Shown here: in pieces, positions 29,431 to 38,680 of the stretch | Numbering within the stretch: the stretch's first letter is position 1 | Layout: each line of letters starts with the position of its first letter | NCBI GenBank assembly: GCA_965223725.1 | Contig: CBDCXE010000003.1 | Location: forward strand, 248,001 to 312,000 | Origin: CBDCXE01 sp965223725 [NCBI: Nitrospinota bacterium] | GTDB lineage: Bacteria > Nitrospinota_A > UBA7883 | Reading direction: 5' to 3' | DNA length: 64,000 nucleotides | Notes under the pieces: generated by a model | Told to the model about the DNA's origin: nothing | Databases searched by the model: none | What the model saw: the letters and a program-made list of their open reading frames with translations, nothing else | Position numbers and translations under genes: made by a program

Positions 29431-30504
29431 ATGGCAGGAAGTTCATTCGGCAAACAGTTCAGGATAGCCACCTGGGGTGAATCCCACGGCCCCGCAATAG
29501 GTGTGGTGATCGATGGTTGCCCATCCGGCGTCGCCATAGATGAAGCGGTTATCCAAAAACAGCTCGACCGCCGGCGGGTGGGCCAGAGCGCGGTCACCTC
29601 GCAACGGAAGGAAGCGGATCGATGCAAAATAGTATCCGGTGTATTCGAAGGCTTGACCACCGGCGCGCCCATCAGCGTGATCATCGATAACAAGGATTCC
29701 GATTCATCCGCCTACGACGCGATAAAGGAAAAGTTCCGCCCCGGCCACGCCGACTATACCTACACCGTAAAATATGGCCACCGTGACTGGCGCGGCGGCG
29801 GGCGGGCCTCCGCCAGAGAGACAGCATGCCGTGTGGCGGGCGGCGCTGTGGCGGGGCAGATATTAAGCGATGTTGGTATCGACGTCTATGCGCACACAGT
29901 GCAGATAGCCGACGTGATTGCCGATACATTTGACCGGGATGTCATCGAATCGAACGATGTCCGGTGCGCCGATCCGGACGTTGCGGAACGGATGATAGAA
30001 AAAATCCTGGAAGCCAGGAAAGCGGGCGACTCTGTCGGCGGGATTATCGAAGTCCGGGCGGAAAGTGTTCCTGCCGGGCTGGGCGAGCCGATATACGATA
30101 AGCTGGACGCCGACCTGGCCAGCGCCCTGATGTCGATCAACGCCGTCAAGGGGGTGGAGATCGGCGCCGGTTTTTCCGCCACCGGAATGCGCGGATCGGA
30201 ACATAACGACCAGATGCGGATAGTGGATGGCAAGCCGACTTTCGTCACCAATAACAGTGGCGGCATAGATGGTGGCGTCAGCAACGGCAACACCATCGTC
30301 GCGCGGATGGTGGTCAAGCCGACCCCGTCTATATTGAAAGCACAGAAAACCATCGACCGGTCGGGCGCCGAAACCACGATACAGGTCGAGGGCCGTCACG
30401 ACCCATGCGTCTGTCCCCGCGCCGTGCCGGTGGCCGAGGCTATGATGATGATCACCCTGGCCGACCACTATCTGCGCGCCCGGTCCGCACGACTGAAAGA
30501 TTGA
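29431..30504 (+). CDS. aroC: Chorismate synthase
   Basis: FMN-dependent elimination of phosphate from EPSP to chorismate. 357 residues, family length. N-terminal GKQFRIATWGESHGPAIGVVIDGCP, then RRVGQSAVTSQRKEAD, RPGHADYTYTVKYGHRDWRGGGRASARET and the C-terminal GRHDPCVCPRAVPVAEAM are all intact. Supplies chorismate to the upstream pheA/tyrA. Stop TGA overlaps the neighbourhood of the following gene start. Confidence 0.98.
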   Translation: MAGSSFGKQFRIATWGESHGPAIGVVIDGCPSGVAIDEAVIQKQLDRRRVGQSAVTSQRKEADRCKIVSGVFEGLTTGAPISVIIDNKDSDSSAYDAIKEKFRPGHADYTYTVKYGHRDWRGGGRASARETACRVAGGAVAGQILSDVGIDVYAHTVQIADVIADTFDRDVIESNDVRCADPDVAERMIEKILEARKAGDSVGGIIEVRAESVPAGLGEPIYDKLDADLASALMSINAVKGVEIGAGFSATGMRGSEHNDQMRIVDGKPTFVTNNSGGIDGGVSNGNTIVARMVVKPTPSILKAQKTIDRSGAETTIQVEGRHDPCVCPRAVPVAEAMMMITLADHYLRARSARLKD

Positions 30505-30509
30505 ATCTG

Positions 30510-33458
30510 GTGTCGATCAGCTCTTTCATACAGGAACTGAAATCCTCCAAAGGGCCAGACGGCGACATAGTTCATGACCGCAAGATCGAACCGCAAAAAC
30601 CGGACAGAAAACCGATCCCTGATCTTCATCCAGCGCTGGTATCGAAGCTGGGGCAGCAGGGCCTGACAGAGCTGTACTCCCATCAGGCGGATGCGATAGA
30701 GGCTGCGACCAACGGCCGTGATGTGATAGTCGCCACGCCCACGGCCTCCGGCAAAACGCTCTGCTATATGGCGCCGGTGATGCACGATTTTTTGAACGAC
30801 CCGGAGAGCAAGGCGATATTTCTGTTCCCGCTAAAAGCGCTGGAGCATGATCAGTTGAAATCGTTTCGGGAGCTGGCGGAGGGCCTGCCGGGCGATATCA
30901 ACGCAGAGATATTTGATGGCGATACGTCGGCCCATTTTCGCAAAAAAATCCTGGCCAACCAGCCGCGGGCGATATTTACGAATCCCGATATGCTGCATCT
31001 CTCCATACTTCCATACCATCACAAATGGGAGGAGTTTTTCAAAAAGCTAAAGTATGTGGTTGTGGACGAGACCCACACATACCGCGGCGTGTTCGGCTCC
31101 CATGTGGCGCAGATATTCAAGCGGTTGATCAGGATCGCCAGCCACTACGGCGCCAAGCTGCAATTCATCTGTTGCTCCGCCACCATCAATAACCCGGGCG
31201 GTTTTGCCGAAACATTGACCGGACGGGGGTTCGAAGTTGTCAATCAATCGGGCGCGCCGAGGCCGGGCGGACATTTCATCGTATACAACACCGACGCCAG
31301 CCCATACACCGACGCGTCGAAGATTTTCCGGCAGGCGATCCGGTCGAACCTGAAAACCATTGCGTTCACCAAATCGCGCAAGATCACCGAGCTGATATAC
31401 ACATGGACCGCCCAGGCTGACCCGGAGCTGGCGGCGCGGGTCAGTTGCTACCGCGCCGGATTTTTGCCGGAGGAGCGGCGACAGATAGAGCAGGATCTGT
31501 TCAGCGGGAAGCTGGACGGTGTGGTCTCCACCTCGGCGCTGGAGATGGGGGTCGATATCGGTGGGCTGGATGTCTGCGTGCTGGTCGGCTATCCTGGCAC
31601 CATAATCAACACGTGGCAGCGTAGCGGCCGGGTCGGCCGTGGTGACCGGGAGTTTCTGATCGTGCTGGTGGCGCAGCCGGACGCGCTGGATCAATATTTC
31701 GTTCGTCACCCGGAGGAGCTTTTCACGCGCGAGTTCGAATCGGCCATCATCGACCCGGACAACGAGCCGATACTGAAAAGCCATATCATCTGCGCCAGCG
31801 CGGAGCTGCCGATACTGGCCGATGACAGGTGGTTCAGTCCGGTGGAGAAAACGAAGGAGTTCAATGAGCTGATCCGGGAGCGGCGGCTGGTCCTCTCCAA
31901 AGATGGCGACAAGTGGCTCTCCCCCCGGCAGTACCCGCATCGCGATGTGCATATCCGCTCCATCGGTGATCGCTATTCAATATTCATAAACAGCGGACAG
32001 ACCATAATAGGCGACATCAGCGGCTCGCGGGTATTCAAGGAGGGGCACGAGGGGGCGGTTTATCTGCATAAGGGCCGGCAGTATGTGGTGGAGCGGCTCG
32101 ATCTGGAGAAACGCGCGGTCCATGTAAAACCTATGGACGAGCGTTACTATACCCGGCCCCGGTCGGATAAAGAGACGGAGATACTGAGCGTCATCAAAGA
32201 AAAACAGGTGGAAGGATTCACAATCAAGCTGGGCAGGCTGAAGGTGACAGAACAGGTGATCGGCTATGAGAAGCGGGCCATATTCGGGCAAGGGTCGATG
32301 GGCGTGTTCGATCTGGAAAGTCCGGTCACCGAGTTCGAAACCGTCGGCTTCTGGATAGAGATCGACGACGTGATAAAAAGTAGAATAGAGAACAGCCGGC
32401 TGGGCTACATGGGCGGTATCCACGCCTTCGAGCATGGGGCCATCGCCATGTTCCCACTGTTCGCCCTGTGCGATAGGGACGATATCGGCGGCATTTCCTA
32501 CCCACACTACCCAGCGCTCGGTCACTCCGCCGTGTTTTTCTACGATGGCTACCCTGGTGGACTGGGGCTGTGCGAGGCTGTATACGATAAAGTCGAGCAG
32601 TTATGGGAGACCACACGGAAACTGATCGCCGATTGCGATTGTGAGGTCGGTTGCCCTTCATGTATCCATTCGCCCAAATGCGGCTCCGGCAACAAGCCGC
32701 TGGACAAACAGGCGGCGCTGACATTGCTGGAGTATGTGTGCGGAGCCAAAAAAGCGCCCACTGCAAGCAGAAAAGCGAAGCCAACGGTGAAGATAGTGGA
32801 ACCGGTGACGCCAGCGGCGCTGGATGACGATGCAGATTATATTGACCCGGCTCCGGAGCGGCGGATACTCTTCTTTGACCTGGAGACCAAGAAAAGCGCG
32901 GAGGAGGTGGGTGGCTGGAACGCGATCCATCTGATGGAGCTGGCGGTGGCGGTGATCTACGACTCGCGGGAGAAGCGTTACATACGTTATTGGGAAGATG
33001 ACGTGAACGAGCTGATCGATAAGATTCTATCGGCCGACCTGGTGGTGGGGTTCAACCATATTCGGTTTGACTACACCGTCCTCTCCGGCTATAGCGACAC
33101 CAACCTGAAGCGGAAGGCCAAATCGTTCGATATCCTGAGTGATATCCATAGCCGGCTCAACTTCCGCCTCAGCCTCGGTCATCTGGCGCAGGCCACGCTG
33201 GACAAACCGAAAAGCGCCGATGGATTGCAATCGCTGAAATGGTGGAAAGAGGGGAAATATGAGCAGGTGGCCGATTATTGCCAGGTGGATGTGGAGATCA
33301 CCAAAGAGCTGTTCGAGTTTGGGCTGGAGCAAGGTTATCTGGCCTATAAACTGAAGAGCGGTGAAACGGCCCGCATCGACCTTGACTGGGATCTGGACCG
33401 GATTATTAAAGAAGCAGGCAATCGGCCAGCCGTTAAAAAGCGAAGGCTGAAGTTTTAG
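30510..33458 (+). CDS. MrfA-like DEAD/DEAH helicase fused to MrfB-like RNase H-fold exonuclease
   Basis: 982 residues starting at GTG 30510 (an upstream in-frame start at 30405 lies inside aroC and is unlikely). N-terminal helicase: Walker A TPTASGKT near 76, DETH box near 182, motif III CCSAT, helicase-C STSALEMGVDIGGLD near 340, QRSGRVGRGD. A C-terminal cysteine cluster CDCEVGCPSC...C (about 709-726) is the MZB zinc site of MrfA/YprA. From about 785 an RNase H-like domain begins: FDLET (DxE), VGFNHIRFDY and YCQVDVE (final Asp near 927), like YprB/MrfB. In Bacillus MrfA and MrfB are separate proteins in mitomycin repair. It stands between aroC and ispD. Confidence 0.9.
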   Translation: MSISSFIQELKSSKGPDGDIVHDRKIEPQKPDRKPIPDLHPALVSKLGQQGLTELYSHQADAIEAATNGRDVIVATPTASGKTLCYMAPVMHDFLNDPESKAIFLFPLKALEHDQLKSFRELAEGLPGDINAEIFDGDTSAHFRKKILANQPRAIFTNPDMLHLSILPYHHKWEEFFKKLKYVVVDETHTYRGVFGSHVAQIFKRLIRIASHYGAKLQFICCSATINNPGGFAETLTGRGFEVVNQSGAPRPGGHFIVYNTDASPYTDASKIFRQAIRSNLKTIAFTKSRKITELIYTWTAQADPELAARVSCYRAGFLPEERRQIEQDLFSGKLDGVVSTSALEMGVDIGGLDVCVLVGYPGTIINTWQRSGRVGRGDREFLIVLVAQPDALDQYFVRHPEELFTREFESAIIDPDNEPILKSHIICASAELPILADDRWFSPVEKTKEFNELIRERRLVLSKDGDKWLSPRQYPHRDVHIRSIGDRYSIFINSGQTIIGDISGSRVFKEGHEGAVYLHKGRQYVVERLDLEKRAVHVKPMDERYYTRPRSDKETEILSVIKEKQVEGFTIKLGRLKVTEQVIGYEKRAIFGQGSMGVFDLESPVTEFETVGFWIEIDDVIKSRIENSRLGYMGGIHAFEHGAIAMFPLFALCDRDDIGGISYPHYPALGHSAVFFYDGYPGGLGLCEAVYDKVEQLWETTRKLIADCDCEVGCPSCIHSPKCGSGNKPLDKQAALTLLEYVCGAKKAPTASRKAKPTVKIVEPVTPAALDDDADYIDPAPERRILFFDLETKKSAEEVGGWNAIHLMELAVAVIYDSREKRYIRYWEDDVNELIDKILSADLVVGFNHIRFDYTVLSGYSDTNLKRKAKSFDILSDIHSRLNFRLSLGHLAQATLDKPKSADGLQSLKWWKEGKYEQVADYCQVDVEITKELFEFGLEQGYLAYKLKSGETARIDLDWDLDRIIKEAGNRPAVKKRRLKF

Positions 33459-33462
33459 GCAT

Positions 33463-34149
33463 ATGAGCGTCACAGCAATTGTCCCGGCCGCTGGCGCCGG
33501 CGAGCGGTTCCACAGCGATATAAAGAAGCAGTTCTATCAGCTGGGTGGTATGCCACTTTTGGCGCGGACTATCTCGAACCTGTCGATGTCGGATGAAATA
33601 GATAACATAATTGTGGTGACCCATCCAGAGCAGATTGATCATTGTGAAAAAATCATTGCGGAACATGACCTGAGTAAAGTCAGCGCAGCAATCGAAGGAG
33701 GCGCCACACGGCAGGAATCGGTAAGCAACGGGTTTCGGCAAGTGGCCCACGATGTGGAGCTGGTGATGGTCCATGATGGCGTGCGCCCCTTCGTCACGGC
33801 TGATATGGTTGACGCTGTGGCTAAAGCGGCAAGGGAGCATGGCGCCGCTATTGCCGCGGTCAAGGTAACCGACACAATTAAAAAAGTGATCGATGACGTC
33901 GTAACGGAAACTGTGGATAGAGGGGGGCTCGTACGATCCCACACCCCTCAATGTTTCCAGTACGACATACTGCGAGACGCCATAAAAAAAGCGGAGCAAG
34001 ATAGCTTTGCTGGCACAGACGAAGCCTCACTGGTCGAACGGATCGGGCTGGATGTCCATATTGTGGAAGGCTCGCCATCTAACATAAAGATCACAATTAT
34101 GAGCGATCTAACGTTAGCCAGGGCGTTACTGGACTTTCAGAAAAAATAG
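33463..34149 (+). CDS. ispD: 2-C-methyl-D-erythritol 4-phosphate cytidylyltransferase
   Basis: Third MEP-pathway enzyme, joining MEP and CTP; 228 residues. Motifs are PAAGAGERF (nucleotide site, near 8-16), EGGATRQESVSNGF near 82, and HDGVRPFVT near 106. The C-terminal GSPSNIKITIMSDL is as in the family. It does not include IspF, so it is the stand-alone form. It lies 4 bases after the helicase/nuclease gene; dxr and uppS in this window belong to the same pathway. Confidence 0.97.
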   Translation: MSVTAIVPAAGAGERFHSDIKKQFYQLGGMPLLARTISNLSMSDEIDNIIVVTHPEQIDHCEKIIAEHDLSKVSAAIEGGATRQESVSNGFRQVAHDVELVMVHDGVRPFVTADMVDAVAKAAREHGAAIAAVKVTDTIKKVIDDVVTETVDRGGLVRSHTPQCFQYDILRDAIKKAEQDSFAGTDEASLVERIGLDVHIVEGSPSNIKITIMSDLTLARALLDFQKK

Positions 34150-34384: not shown

Positions 34385-35377
34385 ATGTCGAAGCTTCCAA
34401 TCGTAAACGATCTGGGGTTTTATGAAATCAGAATGGAATCTGTTGGTGGATTTGGCGCCAACCTGGCCGGGAAGATTCTTGGCGAAGCTGGTGTGCTGGG
34501 CATGGGGTTCAACGGCTCCAACTTTTCAAGCTACGGTTCCGAGAAGAAAGGCAGCCCGGTAAAGGCGTTTATCCGGTTTTGTGATTCCGAAAAAATTGTG
34601 CGGGTCAACAGCCCGGTCACCGATCCGCATATGCTGGTCATCTTTGTGGAGAGCATGCTCGACAGCACGCCTGGATTAATTTCGGGCGCTGGCGAAAACA
34701 CCGCCGTGATAGTGAATACATCCATGAGCCCGGACGAGGCGCGGGACAAGATGAAGCTGAACGCGGGCATGGTGGTCACGGTCGACGCGATGAAAATCGC
34801 CGTGGAAGAGAAGACCCGTGTGAACACCGCCCTGCTGGGCACAGTGGCTTCGGTGTCCGGTTTTATCGATCCGGAAGCGGTGAAAAACTCTATCAAATAT
34901 AATCTGGGCAAAAAATACGCGTTCCTGATCGAGCCGAACCTGAAGACGTTTGATCGAGGCGCCAAGGAGTATCAATCGAAATGTTTCGATGATGATGGCA
35001 AATATCCGCCACAGCCGTTCCGGCGCGACGGGCAGAAACTCGGTTATATGAACCAGGCCATTGGCGGTGTCATCACCACACCGGGCAACTCTGTGCATAA
35101 GGACTTGACCGTATCCCGGGCAGGGTGGATTCCCATTTTGTTGAAAGATTTATGCACAAACTGTGGTGAGTGTGACATTACCTGCCCCGATTACTGTTTT
35201 GAATGGAACAGGGAAGTTGATAAAAAGGGGAAAGAGGGACAGGTTTTGAAACGAATTGTATATCAACATTGCAAAGGATGCCTGCGCTGTGTGGAGATCT
35301 GCAAGTTTAGCGCGCTGGTTTCCAAAGTAGAGGCGGAGACCGATCCGGAAATCATTGAAAGAGGATATTCAGGATAA
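34385..35377 (+). CDS. 2-oxoacid:ferredoxin oxidoreductase, fused gamma and delta subunits
   Basis: 330 residues. The gamma (catalytic-subunit II) part, about 1-190, begins EIRMESVGGFGANLAGK with the GFNGSNFSSYGSEKKGSPV segment. A linker leads to a two-cluster ferredoxin domain: CTNCGECDITCP near 257 and CKGCLRCVEIC near 297, for two [4Fe-4S] clusters. This makes it the electron-transfer partner of the next gene. The enzyme decarboxylates a 2-oxoacid (probably pyruvate, possibly 2-oxoglutarate or another) to an acyl-CoA, reducing ferredoxin, or runs in reverse. TTAGGAG lies upstream of the ATG. Confidence 0.88.
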   Translation: MSKLPIVNDLGFYEIRMESVGGFGANLAGKILGEAGVLGMGFNGSNFSSYGSEKKGSPVKAFIRFCDSEKIVRVNSPVTDPHMLVIFVESMLDSTPGLISGAGENTAVIVNTSMSPDEARDKMKLNAGMVVTVDAMKIAVEEKTRVNTALLGTVASVSGFIDPEAVKNSIKYNLGKKYAFLIEPNLKTFDRGAKEYQSKCFDDDGKYPPQPFRRDGQKLGYMNQAIGGVITTPGNSVHKDLTVSRAGWIPILLKDLCTNCGECDITCPDYCFEWNREVDKKGKEGQVLKRIVYQHCKGCLRCVEICKFSALVSKVEAETDPEIIERGYSG

Positions 35378-35403
35378 CAGCCTGATAAGGAGATAGACCA
35401 TAA

Positions 35404-37698
35404 ATGGGCACTAAAACAAAAGCTAAAAAATCTAAGGCAAGTAAACCGGTACAAGTGACCGATTTCAAATCTGGTAACGAGATGTCGTCGCTTGCGGCGT
35501 CGCATGTAAACTTTCATATCATGGGTTACTACCCGATCACACCGTCCACCGAAGTGGCGGAGTTTCTGGACGAAATGGGCGCCAATGGCGAGCATGATGT
35601 GCGTATGGTCCCGGGTGATGGAGAGCATGGCGCGGCTGGCATATGCTATGGCGCGACCACGGCAGGTGGCCGGGTGTTCAATGCGACGTCGGCCAATGGG
35701 CTTCTATACTCTATAGAGCAGATGCCTGTCCAGTCTGGCACCCGATACCCGATGGTGCTCAACCTTGTGTGCCGTTCGGTTTCTGGTCCGTTGGATATCC
35801 GCGGCGACCATTCCGACCTGGTCTCTACCCTGGATATGGGCTGGATCGTGCTTATGGCAAAGGACCCGCAGGCGACCTATGATATGACAGCTATTGCGGT
35901 GAAACTGGGCGAGCATGAAGATGTCCGCCTGCCTGTGATCGTGGCGGATGACGGATTTTTCACGTCGCACCAAAAACGGCGCGTGAGCTATTTCGAGGAT
36001 CGAAAAGTCATTCAGGATTTTGTTGGTGAGTTCAACCCGATGAACAGCTCGGTCGACCCTGCAAAGCCGATTACTATCGGCCCATACATGAACGATCCGG
36101 ACCAGATAAACAACAAAAAACAGCTATCCATCGCCATGTCCGCTGCGGAATCTGTCCTGCCGAAAATATATGAGGAGTGGGAAAAAATAAGCGGCAGGAA
36201 ATATGAGCATCTTGAATCGTACATGATGGATGACGCGGAAGTAGCCATCTTCATACTCAATTCCGCTGCGGATACTGCCATGAACGCGGCGGACCGGATG
36301 AGGGCGGATGGTGTGAAGGCTGGCGTTATGTACCCCACCTGCATCAGGCCGTTTCCGTCAGAGCAAGTGCGCCAGATGTGCAAAAACGTTAAAGCTGTTG
36401 TTGTGGGCGACAGGGCCGATTCGTATGGCGCCCATGGCGGCAGGATGGCGACGGAAGTGAAAGCCGCGTTGAAAGATGATCCGGATAACAGAACGTTGGT
36501 CGTATCCCGTATATATGGGCTGGGCGGCAAGGATATTTTTGCGGATGACGCTGTTGAAATGTTTGGTGTGGCTCTAGACGCTGTGGCCAAGGGCAAGGCT
36601 GATATTCCGTACGACTATATAGGCGTCTCGCCGGGCGACCCGGAATGGAAGCCGGCGGAGGGAGTCCCGGCTTTGACTGAAGAACAGCAGTCCCCAGGTA
36701 TATTAAAAGTAACTGAAAACGAAGAAACCGGTATTGTGGAAGTTAAAGGTGTGAAGCAGCGGGACCTCACCGCAATGCCGCAGCGGATCACACCCGGACA
36801 TGGCGCATGCCCCGGTTGCGGTATCTTCCCGAATATTGGCACGTTCCTGAAAGGTATAGAAGGATTCGTCGTGATGCTGTGGCACACCGGTTGCGGCATG
36901 GTGGTCACCACCGGCTACCCGAACAGCTCGTTTGCCATCACATATATACATAACCTTTTCCAGAACGGCGCGGCGACCCTGTCTGGCGTTGTGGAGATGT
37001 ATAAAGAGAAACAGAAGCGGGGCGAGATTCCGAAGGATCAGGATATTACATTTGTAATGGTCACCGGCGATGGCGGGCTGGATATCGGCCTGGGGCCTGC
37101 GCTGGGCACGGCGTTTCGGAACCATAGCATGATCATCCTTGAGTATGATAACCAGGGGTACATGAACACTGGCAACCAGATGTCGTTCACGACTCCGATA
37201 GGTCACGCCACTTCGACGTCGAATGTCGGCACTGTGGGCAGGGGTAAAACGTTTGCTCATAAGGATTCGGCGCAGTTGTTCGCATCGTGTCATATTCCTT
37301 ATGTTTTCACCGCCACCGAGTCTATGTACAAAGACCTTATCGCCAAGGCGGCCAAGGCGCAGTGGTATGCAAAGAACGAAGGGCTGGTGTTTGGCAAGTT
37401 GTTCTCCGACTGTCCGTTGAACTGGCGCCATCCGGATGAGACCGGGCAAGCGGTCTGTCAGGCGGCGGTGGATTGCAACTTCTTCCCGATTTATGAGGTA
37501 GAGCGCGGGGTCACCACCCTAAATTATGACCCGGAGGAAAAGGGCAAAAAAGTGCCGGTGACAGAGTGGCTGAAACTGATGGGTAAAACCAAGCATATGC
37601 TGAAGGATGAAAACAAGGATCTGGTCGACAAGCTCCAGCATGAGTCGGACCGTCGTTTCGCCAGGATAAAAGCGATGAGCGAACACCCGGACTTGTAA
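35404..37698 (+). CDS. 2-oxoacid:ferredoxin oxidoreductase, fused alpha and beta subunits
   Basis: 764 residues. The alpha part (about 15-440) has the pyrimidine-domain YYPITPSTE near 43, GEHGAAGICYGA and QSGTRYPM. The beta part (about 455-764) has GHGACPGCG near 468, HTGCGM, and the thiamine-diphosphate motif GDGGLDIG...N near 555. It therefore contains the TPP active site and at least one [4Fe-4S] ligand set. Both catalytic subunits are in one chain and both accessory ones in the other, instead of four separate subunits or one 130-kDa chain. Substrate cannot be fixed from sequence. It lies 26 bases after its partner. Confidence 0.9.
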   Translation: MGTKTKAKKSKASKPVQVTDFKSGNEMSSLAASHVNFHIMGYYPITPSTEVAEFLDEMGANGEHDVRMVPGDGEHGAAGICYGATTAGGRVFNATSANGLLYSIEQMPVQSGTRYPMVLNLVCRSVSGPLDIRGDHSDLVSTLDMGWIVLMAKDPQATYDMTAIAVKLGEHEDVRLPVIVADDGFFTSHQKRRVSYFEDRKVIQDFVGEFNPMNSSVDPAKPITIGPYMNDPDQINNKKQLSIAMSAAESVLPKIYEEWEKISGRKYEHLESYMMDDAEVAIFILNSAADTAMNAADRMRADGVKAGVMYPTCIRPFPSEQVRQMCKNVKAVVVGDRADSYGAHGGRMATEVKAALKDDPDNRTLVVSRIYGLGGKDIFADDAVEMFGVALDAVAKGKADIPYDYIGVSPGDPEWKPAEGVPALTEEQQSPGILKVTENEETGIVEVKGVKQRDLTAMPQRITPGHGACPGCGIFPNIGTFLKGIEGFVVMLWHTGCGMVVTTGYPNSSFAITYIHNLFQNGAATLSGVVEMYKEKQKRGEIPKDQDITFVMVTGDGGLDIGLGPALGTAFRNHSMIILEYDNQGYMNTGNQMSFTTPIGHATSTSNVGTVGRGKTFAHKDSAQLFASCHIPYVFTATESMYKDLIAKAAKAQWYAKNEGLVFGKLFSDCPLNWRHPDETGQAVCQAAVDCNFFPIYEVERGVTTLNYDPEEKGKKVPVTEWLKLMGKTKHMLKDENKDLVDKLQHESDRRFARIKAMSEHPDL

Positions 37699-37909: not shown

Positions 37910-38680
37910 ATGCTTCGTAAATTTTTTGGTATGAGCCAAAAGAGAGGCCAAGACCCACGGAGTTCATCCGTTCCCCACGGCTTACGCATCTATGCCATTG
38001 GCGATATTCATGGCCGGGTAGACTTGCTAAAGTCGCTTCATAAAAAGATAAGCGAAGACGCGAAAAACGCTGATCCGGATACCAGGAAAATAGCAATCTA
38101 CCTGGGCGATTATGTAGACCGGGGCGATCATAGCAAGGAAGTGCTGGATCTGCTGATTGATGAGCCGCTGGAAGGTTTCGAATCTGTTTTCCTGAAGGGT
38201 AATCATGAAGAGATGCTGTGCCATTTTGTGGAGGATGCGTCGGTTGGTCTGGTCTGGCTGGCGTATGGCGGCGACGCGTGTATCTACAGCTACAAGGTGC
38301 CAGCACCCAACGGCACATCGAAACCTGAAGAAGTGGTCAAAATTCAGCGGTCATTGCAAAGCGTGATTCCGGATTCGCATATGGAGTTTTTAAATAACCT
38401 GATGCTCAGCTATGAGGTGGGTGACTACTACTTTGTCCATGCAGGAGTGAACCCAGATCAGCCGTTATTTGAGCAGGGCCCTGCCAGCCAGATGTGGATC
38501 AGGGAGGAGTTTATCAACGATCCCAGGTTCCATGGCAAGGTGATAGTGCATGGCCATACAATTACAGAAACACCGGATATTATGCATAACAGGATCGGAA
38601 TAGACACCGGCGCATACTATAGCGGAACGTTGACATGCCTTGTATTGGAGAATGACGAGAAGCGATTTATAACAACCTGA
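37910..38680 (+). CDS. PPP-family metallophosphatase (bacterial serine/threonine phosphatase-like)
   Basis: 256 residues, cytoplasmic. All metal-site motifs are visible: GDIHG near 34, GDYVDRGDHS near 66, KGNHEEML near 98, a HAGV segment near 167 and VHGHTITE near 205. Such PPP proteins act on phosphoproteins or nucleotide tetraphosphates (ApaH-like), which sequence does not distinguish. AGGAAG lies upstream of the ATG. It lies between the oxidoreductase operon and the ribosomal operon and ends about 40 bases before the ribosomal promoter, so it is probably a separate unit. Confidence 0.85.
   Translation: MLRKFFGMSQKRGQDPRSSSVPHGLRIYAIGDIHGRVDLLKSLHKKISEDAKNADPDTRKIAIYLGDYVDRGDHSKEVLDLLIDEPLEGFESVFLKGNHEEMLCHFVEDASVGLVWLAYGGDACIYSYKVPAPNGTSKPEEVVKIQRSLQSVIPDSHMEFLNNLMLSYEVGDYYFVHAGVNPDQPLFEQGPASQMWIREEFINDPRFHGKVIVHGHTITETPDIMHNRIGIDTGAYYSGTLTCLVLENDEKRFITT

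What the first reader, a model, noticed from the sequence alone, without database searches (positions are those of the whole stretch)
30510..33458. MrfA-like helicase and MrfB-like exonuclease fused in one protein
The N-terminal half carries DEAD/DEAH motifs plus the Cys cluster (CDCEVGCPSC..C) diagnostic of MrfA/YprA. The C-terminal 200 residues carry RNase H-like exonuclease motifs (FDLET, N..FD, YCQVD) as in MrfB/YprB. In Bacillus the two act together as separate proteins in a UvrA-independent mitomycin-type repair pathway. A single polypeptide suggests a fixed helicase-nuclease machine. It also sits between aroC and ispD, an unexpected context.
Basis: partly seen in the sequence, partly recalled or inferred. 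Interest (0 to 1): 0.6.

Follow-up and report, generated by a model that had tools for sequence, protein, structure and literature searches.

The report
Repair helicase fused to DEDDy exonuclease

Summary
Window 30510-33458 (+) is one 982-residue frame: a YprA/MrfA-type SF2 helicase (best solved relative B. subtilis MrfA, E 4e-152), a disordered linker (about 753-780) and a 3'-5' exonuclease domain of the RNase_H_2 family. It is no assembly artefact: 57 of 198 Desulfobacterota and 30 of 199 Acidobacteriota genomes carry the fusion (one in two broken frames). [quoted passage not shown]

The interpretation needs correcting. The nuclease half is not MrfB: it has a DEDDy site (Tyr in 44 of 44 fused rows) where MrfB has DEDDh (His in 16 of 16), lacks the TPR part and forms its own clade. 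The helicase halves also form their own clade. None of the 87 fused genomes has a clear MrfB, while 76 of 80 genomes with a MrfA-type helicase do. Best reading: a second, self-contained helicase-exonuclease machine that stands in for MrfAB; mechanism and substrate are inferred. The aroC-ispD setting was seen in none of 25 related loci. Moderate interest; new variant of a known kind.

The parts
30510..33458 (+). whole gene, 982 aa helicase-exonuclease fusion (GTG start)
   Evidence: many relatives align from residues 2-7
30678..31190 (+). RecA1 / DEAD domain (res. 57-227): Walker A ATPTASGKT and DETH
   Evidence: PF00270 E 1.3e-31; T78 S80 G81 K82, D186 E187 H189 invariant in 30 fused proteins
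31338..31640 (+). RecA2 / Helicase_C (res. 277-377)
   Evidence: PF00271 E 1.2e-13
31749..31964 (+). winged-helix domain (res. 414-485)
   Evidence: PF22982 WHD_HRQ1 E 7.6e-13
32427..32666 (+). MZB, MrfA Zn-binding domain (res. 640-719) with CDCEVGCPSC
   Evidence: PF09369 E 3.7e-22; cysteines invariant
32766..32849 (+). predicted disordered linker (res. 753-780)
   Evidence: pLDDT under 50 in the full-length model
32856..33455 (+). C-terminal DEDDy 3'-5' exonuclease domain; catalytic D790, E792, D854, Y923, D927
   Evidence: PF13482 28.0 bits; model and fold matches; residues invariant in fused and lone rows
29431..30504 (+). aroC, upstream neighbour (context only)
   Evidence: TIGR00033 E 2.2e-137
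33463..34149 (+). ispD, downstream neighbour (context only)
   Evidence: TIGR00453 E 1.4e-70

Best explanation
The gene encodes a self-contained DNA-repair enzyme: an SF2 helicase of the YprA/MrfA kind carrying in cis a DEDDy 3'-5' exonuclease recruited from a branch of RNase_H_2 other than MrfB. It most likely does the MrfAB job with one polypeptide. The helicase loads on a 3' single strand at a nick or gap near a bulky lesion and moves 3' to 5', and the tethered exonuclease degrades the same strand in the same direction, removing a tract with the lesion; a polymerase and ligase refill. Shown here: architecture, intact active-site residues, a clade of its own for each half, and exclusion between the fusion and MrfB in the sampled genomes. 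Inferred: polarity (from B. subtilis MrfA and MrfB), DNA rather than RNA as substrate, lesion type, and equivalence to MrfAB.
For: Helicase: MrfA is the best PDB match (511 bits; next 93 bits) and the best fold match (6znp, E 3.6e-72); MZB and winged helix present. Nuclease: D790/E792/D854/Y923/D927 conserved in 44 of 44 fused rows (43 different) and 17 of 17 lone rows; model pLDDT 92.8, fold of PolB/T7 polymerase exonuclease domains. Separate branches: nuclease clade of fused and lone rows SH-aLRT 99, MrfB clade 98; helicase clade of 43 fused and 5 unfused rows 100; the 13 helicases taken from MrfB genomes of Desulfobacterota, with one from an Acidobacteriota genome that also has MrfB, 98; hhalign values. 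Exclusion: a clear MrfB in 0 of 57 fused Desulfobacterota and 18 of 18 MrfA-type; 0 of 30 fused Acidobacteriota and 58 of 62 MrfA-type (sorted in 81). 13 of the 18 are rows of the MrfB model and match by construction; the other 5 and all Acidobacteriota are independent. B. subtilis MrfA contacts the exonuclease core, not the TPR, by two-hybrid (PMC11194089, passages), which fits a fusion without TPR.
Against: I found no biochemistry or genetics for this protein family. Exclusion is partly shared ancestry, so the Fisher p-values (6.5e-04, 1.5e-05) overstate it; the tool scored only the best few candidates per genome (8 for MrfB), so a miss is possible, and one fused genome (G102) has a weak MrfB-model match (4.6e-09, exonuclease part) that I did not count. 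Exclusion holds for the fusion, not for the nuclease: three Acidobacteriota genomes (G244, G257, G282) hold MrfB, a MrfA-type helicase and a lone copy of this nuclease. The nuclease also lives alone in 31 of 194 genomes of the Verrucomicrobiota sample, with no MrfA-type helicase found in those 31, so it has uses without this helicase. Four Desulfobacterota members of the helicase clade (G136, G071, G164, G214) lack the nuclease. One Acidobacteriota genome (G307) holds an unfused relative of the fused helicases beside a MrfA-type helicase and MrfB. The relative placement of the halves was not examined; pTM 0.85 may mostly reflect the helicase.
Confidence: 0.62

Rival explanations
1. One reading: the C-terminal half is MrfB itself, fused and diverged, so this is simply MrfAB in one chain.
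For: Same Pfam family PF13482; hhalign E 8.6e-07 between the two profiles; [quoted passage not shown]
Against: Tyr versus His in the active site without exception in my rows; no TPR part; MrfB closer to a third RNase_H_2 group; separate clades. In the 76 genomes with both a MrfA-type helicase and MrfB, I saw no single open frame holding both, judged by the frame lengths printed. Long branches leave the deep order of the three groups open (support 76).
Confidence: 0.15
2. The enzyme is an anti-phage effector, like YprA-family helicases with nuclease tails in ARMADA, TALON or Druantia.
For: Defence YprA helicases often carry C-terminal nucleases (PMC12458937, section 8); PADLOC gives helicase hits, best BrxHI 155 bits, DruE 140 bits.
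Against: The match to B. subtilis MrfA is far stronger (511 bits); the nuclease half has no PADLOC match at E 0.001; the gene sits among aroC, ispD, rpsA and sppA; no widely shared neighbour was recognised around 23 fused loci, though the clusters were not annotated by a family search; the architecture is spread widely within two phyla.
Confidence: 0.08
3. The nuclease half acts on RNA or R-loops (RNase D or NrnC style) or edits 3' ends, and the enzyme serves replication or transcription conflicts more than adduct repair.
For: DEDDy nucleases include RNase D and NrnC (PMC11194089, passages); weak hit to DNA_pol_A_exo1, below its cut-off; the nuclease persists without a detected MrfA-type helicase in Verrucomicrobiota.
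Against: Closest folds and PHROG matches are DNA-polymerase 3'-5' exonucleases (phrog_403 E 1.4e-11); MrfA is a DNA helicase (PMC12458937).
Confidence: 0.15

Closest known systems
MrfA/YprA (B. subtilis; PDB 6znp)
   Same: SF2 core, winged helix, MZB Zn domain with the Cys cluster; best PDB match by sequence and by fold
   Different: MrfA has no nuclease; the fused helicases form their own clade against the MrfA-type helicases sampled (B. subtilis MrfA itself was not in the tree)
MrfB/YprB (B. subtilis; PDB 8un9)
   Same: RNase_H_2/DEDD exonuclease that partners a MrfA helicase
   Different: DEDDh, TPR part, separate gene; the window domain is DEDDy, has no TPR, is in cis, and its profile does not find 8un9 at E up to 1, while a Desulfobacterota MrfB does at 1.2e-28
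Lone ~190-aa DEDDy exonuclease of Verrucomicrobiota (L004, L006, L016 and others)
   Same: 39-47% identical to the window domain in the 15 rows aligned, same active site and same clade
   Different: no helicase in the same frame and no MrfA-type helicase found in 10 of 10 genomes searched with it
S. aureus DinG (exonuclease-helicase fusion)
   Same: helicase and 3'-5' exonuclease in one chain; [quoted passage not shown]
   Different: DEDDh nuclease at the N-terminus, DinG helicase, 5'-3' polarity
TALON YprA helicases
   Same: YprA helicase with a C-terminal RNase H-fold domain (PMC12458937, section 8)
   Different: there the domain is described as inactivated and the system as a predicted defence operon; not compared by sequence here
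Haloarchaeal plasmid locus L154 (pHcu_235)
   Same: YprA-like helicase encoded beside RNase H-like nucleases
   Different: three separate genes; its nucleases resemble the window domain only weakly (hhalign E 8.5e-04 and 0.044)

Membership tests
YprA/MrfA helicase, repair branch | SF2 motifs plus MZB/DUF1998 Zn domain with Cys cluster | tested here: met
YprA/MrfA helicase, repair branch | closer to MrfA than to defence YprA helicases | tested here: met
   511 bits to MrfA; best PADLOC hits 155 and 140 bits. Scores of different models are only roughly comparable; no joint tree with defence members was built
NCBIfam TIGR03817 (helicase/secretion neighborhood putative DEAH-box helicase) | curated score cut-off | tested here: not met
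   697.5 bits against 874.1; best NCBIfam match, but not filed under that model. The model is a 'hypothetical equivalog', not a definition of the whole YprA family
YprA/MrfA helicase, repair branch | 3'-5' DNA unwinding | not testable with these tools
   needs enzyme assay
MrfB/YprB | RNase_H_2 (PF13482) domain | tested here: met
   28.0 bits, cut-off 22, domain given alone
MrfB/YprB | DEDDh active site (His 4 before the last Asp) | tested here: not met
   Tyr in the window and in 44 of 44 fused rows; His in 16 of 16 MrfB rows
MrfB/YprB | C-terminal TPR part | tested here: not met
   the protein ends about 22 residues after the last conserved position of the exonuclease domain
MrfB/YprB | groups with MrfB in a tree | tested here: not met
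   deep order of the RNase_H_2 groups unresolved
MrfB/YprB | fold match to MrfB crystal structure 8un9 | tested here: inconclusive
   not among the 50 rows shown
DEDDy 3'-5' exonuclease | D-x-E, D, Y-x3-D in DnaQ fold | tested here: met
Mitomycin-repair pathway | loss gives mitomycin C sensitivity independent of UvrA | not testable with these tools
   needs a mutant
YprA defence systems (DISARM, Druantia, ARMADA, TALON) | partner genes in the neighbourhood | tested here: inconclusive
   the 9 neighbours between 24611 and 38680 that were scanned gave no defence family; 7 are clearly housekeeping or metabolic, one had no match and one is phosphatase-like. No PADLOC scan of the whole window was made

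The most novel reading that the evidence does not exclude
There are two alternative, independently assembled MrfA-type excision machines in bacteria: the known MrfA + MrfB pair (DEDDh, two genes) and a single-chain YprA-DEDDy enzyme that replaces it lineage by lineage, so that a MrfA-type helicase has paired at least twice with 3'-5' exonucleases of different branches.
Probability: 0.5. Interest if true: 0.5.

Novelty: new variant of a known kind. Interest (0 to 1): 0.36.

Why it matters
If true, pairing this helicase with a 3'-5' exonuclease is the functional core of a repair route that is poorly known outside Bacillus, since evolution arrived at it with two different nucleases. A single-chain enzyme removes the complex-assembly problem and gives a ready object for enzymology and structure: where the nuclease sits relative to the DNA exit, and what limits the tract. 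It also corrects a possible lumping of these proteins under MrfB/YprB.

Tried and rejected
Assembly artefact: rejected, the same fusion was found in 87 of 397 genomes. True MrfB fusion: rejected on active site, TPR and tree. Apparent MrfA-MrfB fusion in G038 (1214-residue open frame holding MrfB): rejected, the helicase (L121 965-3352) lies in another frame. Conserved gene context for the fusion: none recognised; two loci had a relative of the window's sppA at their edge and one a relative of the gene at 37910-38680. Phage origin of the nuclease: 17 phage records match at 29-34% identity, mostly annotated DNA polymerase, best E 4e-06, too weak to argue origin. Lone nuclease as a derivative of the fused form: suggested by the quick tree, but one clade of all fused rows is not rejected (p-AU 0.417). 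Host of the window: no whole genome held, no Rfam match at the gathering threshold; among matches at E up to 1e-100 the PorA+PorB neighbour reached 59-63% in 5 of 148 Desulfobacterota and 37% in the 1 of 149 Acidobacteriota that matched; left open. Plasmids: no tblastn match to the nuclease half at E 0.001. PDB MrfB 8un9 is not in the listed fold rows, which is no evidence of a different fold. Promoter and terminator scan: counts near those of shuffles, not used.

Rows dropped or set aside: before the nuclease tree, L055 (same gene as L010) and refetched duplicates; also L039, L091, L096 and L099. L099 and L043 are identical rows, so 44 fused rows are 43 sequences. In the helicase tree two MrfA-type sets fall outside the 98-support group: L133 (long branch; one of two helicases of G276) and the Verrucomicrobiota set L108-L112. 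Genome classes were sorted by hand from the printed rows. MrfB counts leave out hits weaker than 1e-20: 7 genomes in Desulfobacterota (one of them, G102, fused) and 1 in Acidobacteriota. In Desulfobacterota 5 clade members without nuclease (G130 cut by a contig end), 1 fragment (G095) and 5 other helicases were set aside; one of the 57 (G066) is broken into two frames. In Acidobacteriota 3 clade members without detected nuclease and 6 others (5 lone nucleases, 1 other helicase) were set aside.

Full report
What is there. The window frame 30510-33458 (+) encodes 982 residues without interruption. Pfam assigns DEAD, Helicase_C, WHD_HRQ1 and MZB, the MrfA Zn-binding domain. The best solved relative is B. 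subtilis YprA/MrfA (511 bits; next 93 bits), aligned over residues 7-721 including the cysteine cluster. AlphaFold2 on an alignment of 30 fused proteins gives mean pLDDT 87.0 and pTM 0.85, with residues 753-780 under 50, which reads as a flexible linker; Foldseek puts MrfA first at E 3.6e-72.

The C-terminal half. Given alone it matches RNase_H_2 (PF13482) above the curated cut-off, and 22 of 22 aligned rows (the window and 21 relatives) match the family at E up to 1. Its own model (pLDDT 92.8) resembles the 3'-5' exonuclease domains of T7 and family B DNA polymerases. Phage DNA-polymerase exonuclease profiles match too (phrog_403 E 1.4e-11). The residues D790, E792, D854, Y923 and D927 form a DEDDy site.

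It is not MrfB. MrfB of B. subtilis is DEDDh with a TPR part (PMC11194089, passages read). In my set, 16 of 16 MrfB rows have His, and 44 of 44 fused rows (43 different), 17 of 17 lone nucleases and 7 of 7 other RNase_H_2 rows have Tyr at that column. The label MrfB was tested on one row: L081 finds PDB MrfB 8un9 at 1.2e-28, which the profile of the window domain does not at E up to 1; the other 15 rows were found by similarity to L081. In the tree the fused and lone nucleases are one side of a branch (SH-aLRT 99) and MrfB another (98). By hhalign MrfB is closer to the third group (7e-17) than to the window's family (9e-07). The deep order of the three groups stays open (support 76).

The helicase halves differ too. 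The fused helicases form one clade (SH-aLRT 100) together with a small Desulfobacterota subclade that lacks the nuclease. The 13 helicases taken from Desulfobacterota genomes with MrfB form another (98), which also holds one Acidobacteriota helicase (L132) whose MrfB lies on another contig. Two other MrfA-type sets, L133 and the Verrucomicrobiota helicases L108-L112, fall outside both.

Either one or the other. Desulfobacterota, 198 genomes: 57 with the fusion, 0 of 57 with a clear MrfB; 18 with a MrfA-type helicase, 18 of 18 with MrfB. By place, 15 of the 18 have an RNase_H_2 match beside the helicase, one is 9 kb away and two are on other contigs. Acidobacteriota, 199 genomes: 30 with the fusion, 0 of 30 with MrfB; 62 with a MrfA-type helicase, 58 of 62 with MrfB. 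Thirteen of the MrfB proteins built the search model and match by construction; the other 63 did not. Shared ancestry weakens any p-value. Against a strict rule: G102 (fused) has a weak MrfB-model match of 4.6e-09, and G307 holds an unfused relative of the fused helicases beside MrfA and MrfB.

The nuclease on its own. In the 194-genome Verrucomicrobiota sample there is no fusion, and 31 genomes carry the nuclease alone, with no MrfA-type helicase among those 31; the same was seen in 10 of 10 Verrucomicrobia genomes searched earlier. Many of these records are draft assemblies from metagenomes, so absence is not proof. A scan of genome contigs with the nuclease half gave 41 loci: 5 fused, 36 with no helicase in the frame, of which 3 are cut by a contig end. 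Three Acidobacteriota genomes hold MrfA, MrfB and a lone copy of this nuclease (G244, G257, G282).

Mechanism. Shown: the architecture, intact motifs and exclusion between the fusion and MrfB. Inferred: B. subtilis MrfA is a 3'-5' helicase and MrfB a 3'-5' exonuclease (PMC12458937), so on one strand both would move the same way; a tethered pair would unwind and trim the same 3'-ended strand past a lesion. Two-hybrid data place MrfA against the MrfB exonuclease core rather than the TPR (PMC11194089), which fits a fusion without TPR. Lesion type and pathway are untested.

What is known. PMC12458937 (abstract, sections 5, 8 and 26, and passages; [quoted passage not shown] I found no account of the DEDDy identity or of the exclusion in the library searched (other papers seen as listings only); subscription papers are mostly not held, and that preprint's supplementary tables were not read. 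PMC12345164 (passages) describes S. aureus DinG as resembling a natural MrfA-MrfB fusion, with another helicase and polarity.

Context. The gene is packed between aroC and ispD with 5- and 4-base gaps, after a shikimate kinase-like gene, and further upstream lie sppA and rpsA. Among 25 loci with related genes neither aroC nor ispD was found; two had an sppA relative at their edge; 8 of the 25 are cut by a contig end. The neighbourhood therefore says little about function.

Verdict. Observation confirmed; interpretation partly supported; a widespread but little-described variant of the MrfA-exonuclease theme.

Noticed in passing
window 34385-37698: Pyruvate/2-oxoacid:ferredoxin oxidoreductase encoded as two fused polypeptides: PorC+PorD (34385-35377) and PorA+PorB (35404-37698). 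The PorA+PorB protein has 59-63% relatives in 5 of 148 Desulfobacterota genomes.
   Followed up: partly
L154 1493-6084 (Halobacterium salinarum plasmid pHcu_235): A YprA-like helicase gene lies between two genes annotated as ribonuclease H-like proteins; both nucleases show DEDD-type motifs with Tyr by eye. It may be a separate-gene helicase-nuclease module of haloarchaeal plasmids.
   Followed up: partly
L153 6367-6930: Genome G119 carries both the fusion and a lone ~190-aa paralogue of its nuclease domain.
   Followed up: no
L125, L126, L127, L128: A Desulfobacterota subclade of the fused-helicase clade has no nuclease domain and no MrfB match; what replaces the nuclease is unknown.
   Followed up: partly
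Verrucomicrobiota genomes such as G439, G442, G592, G601: Some lone nucleases lie in open frames of 276-395 residues, which may mean an extra domain.
   Followed up: no
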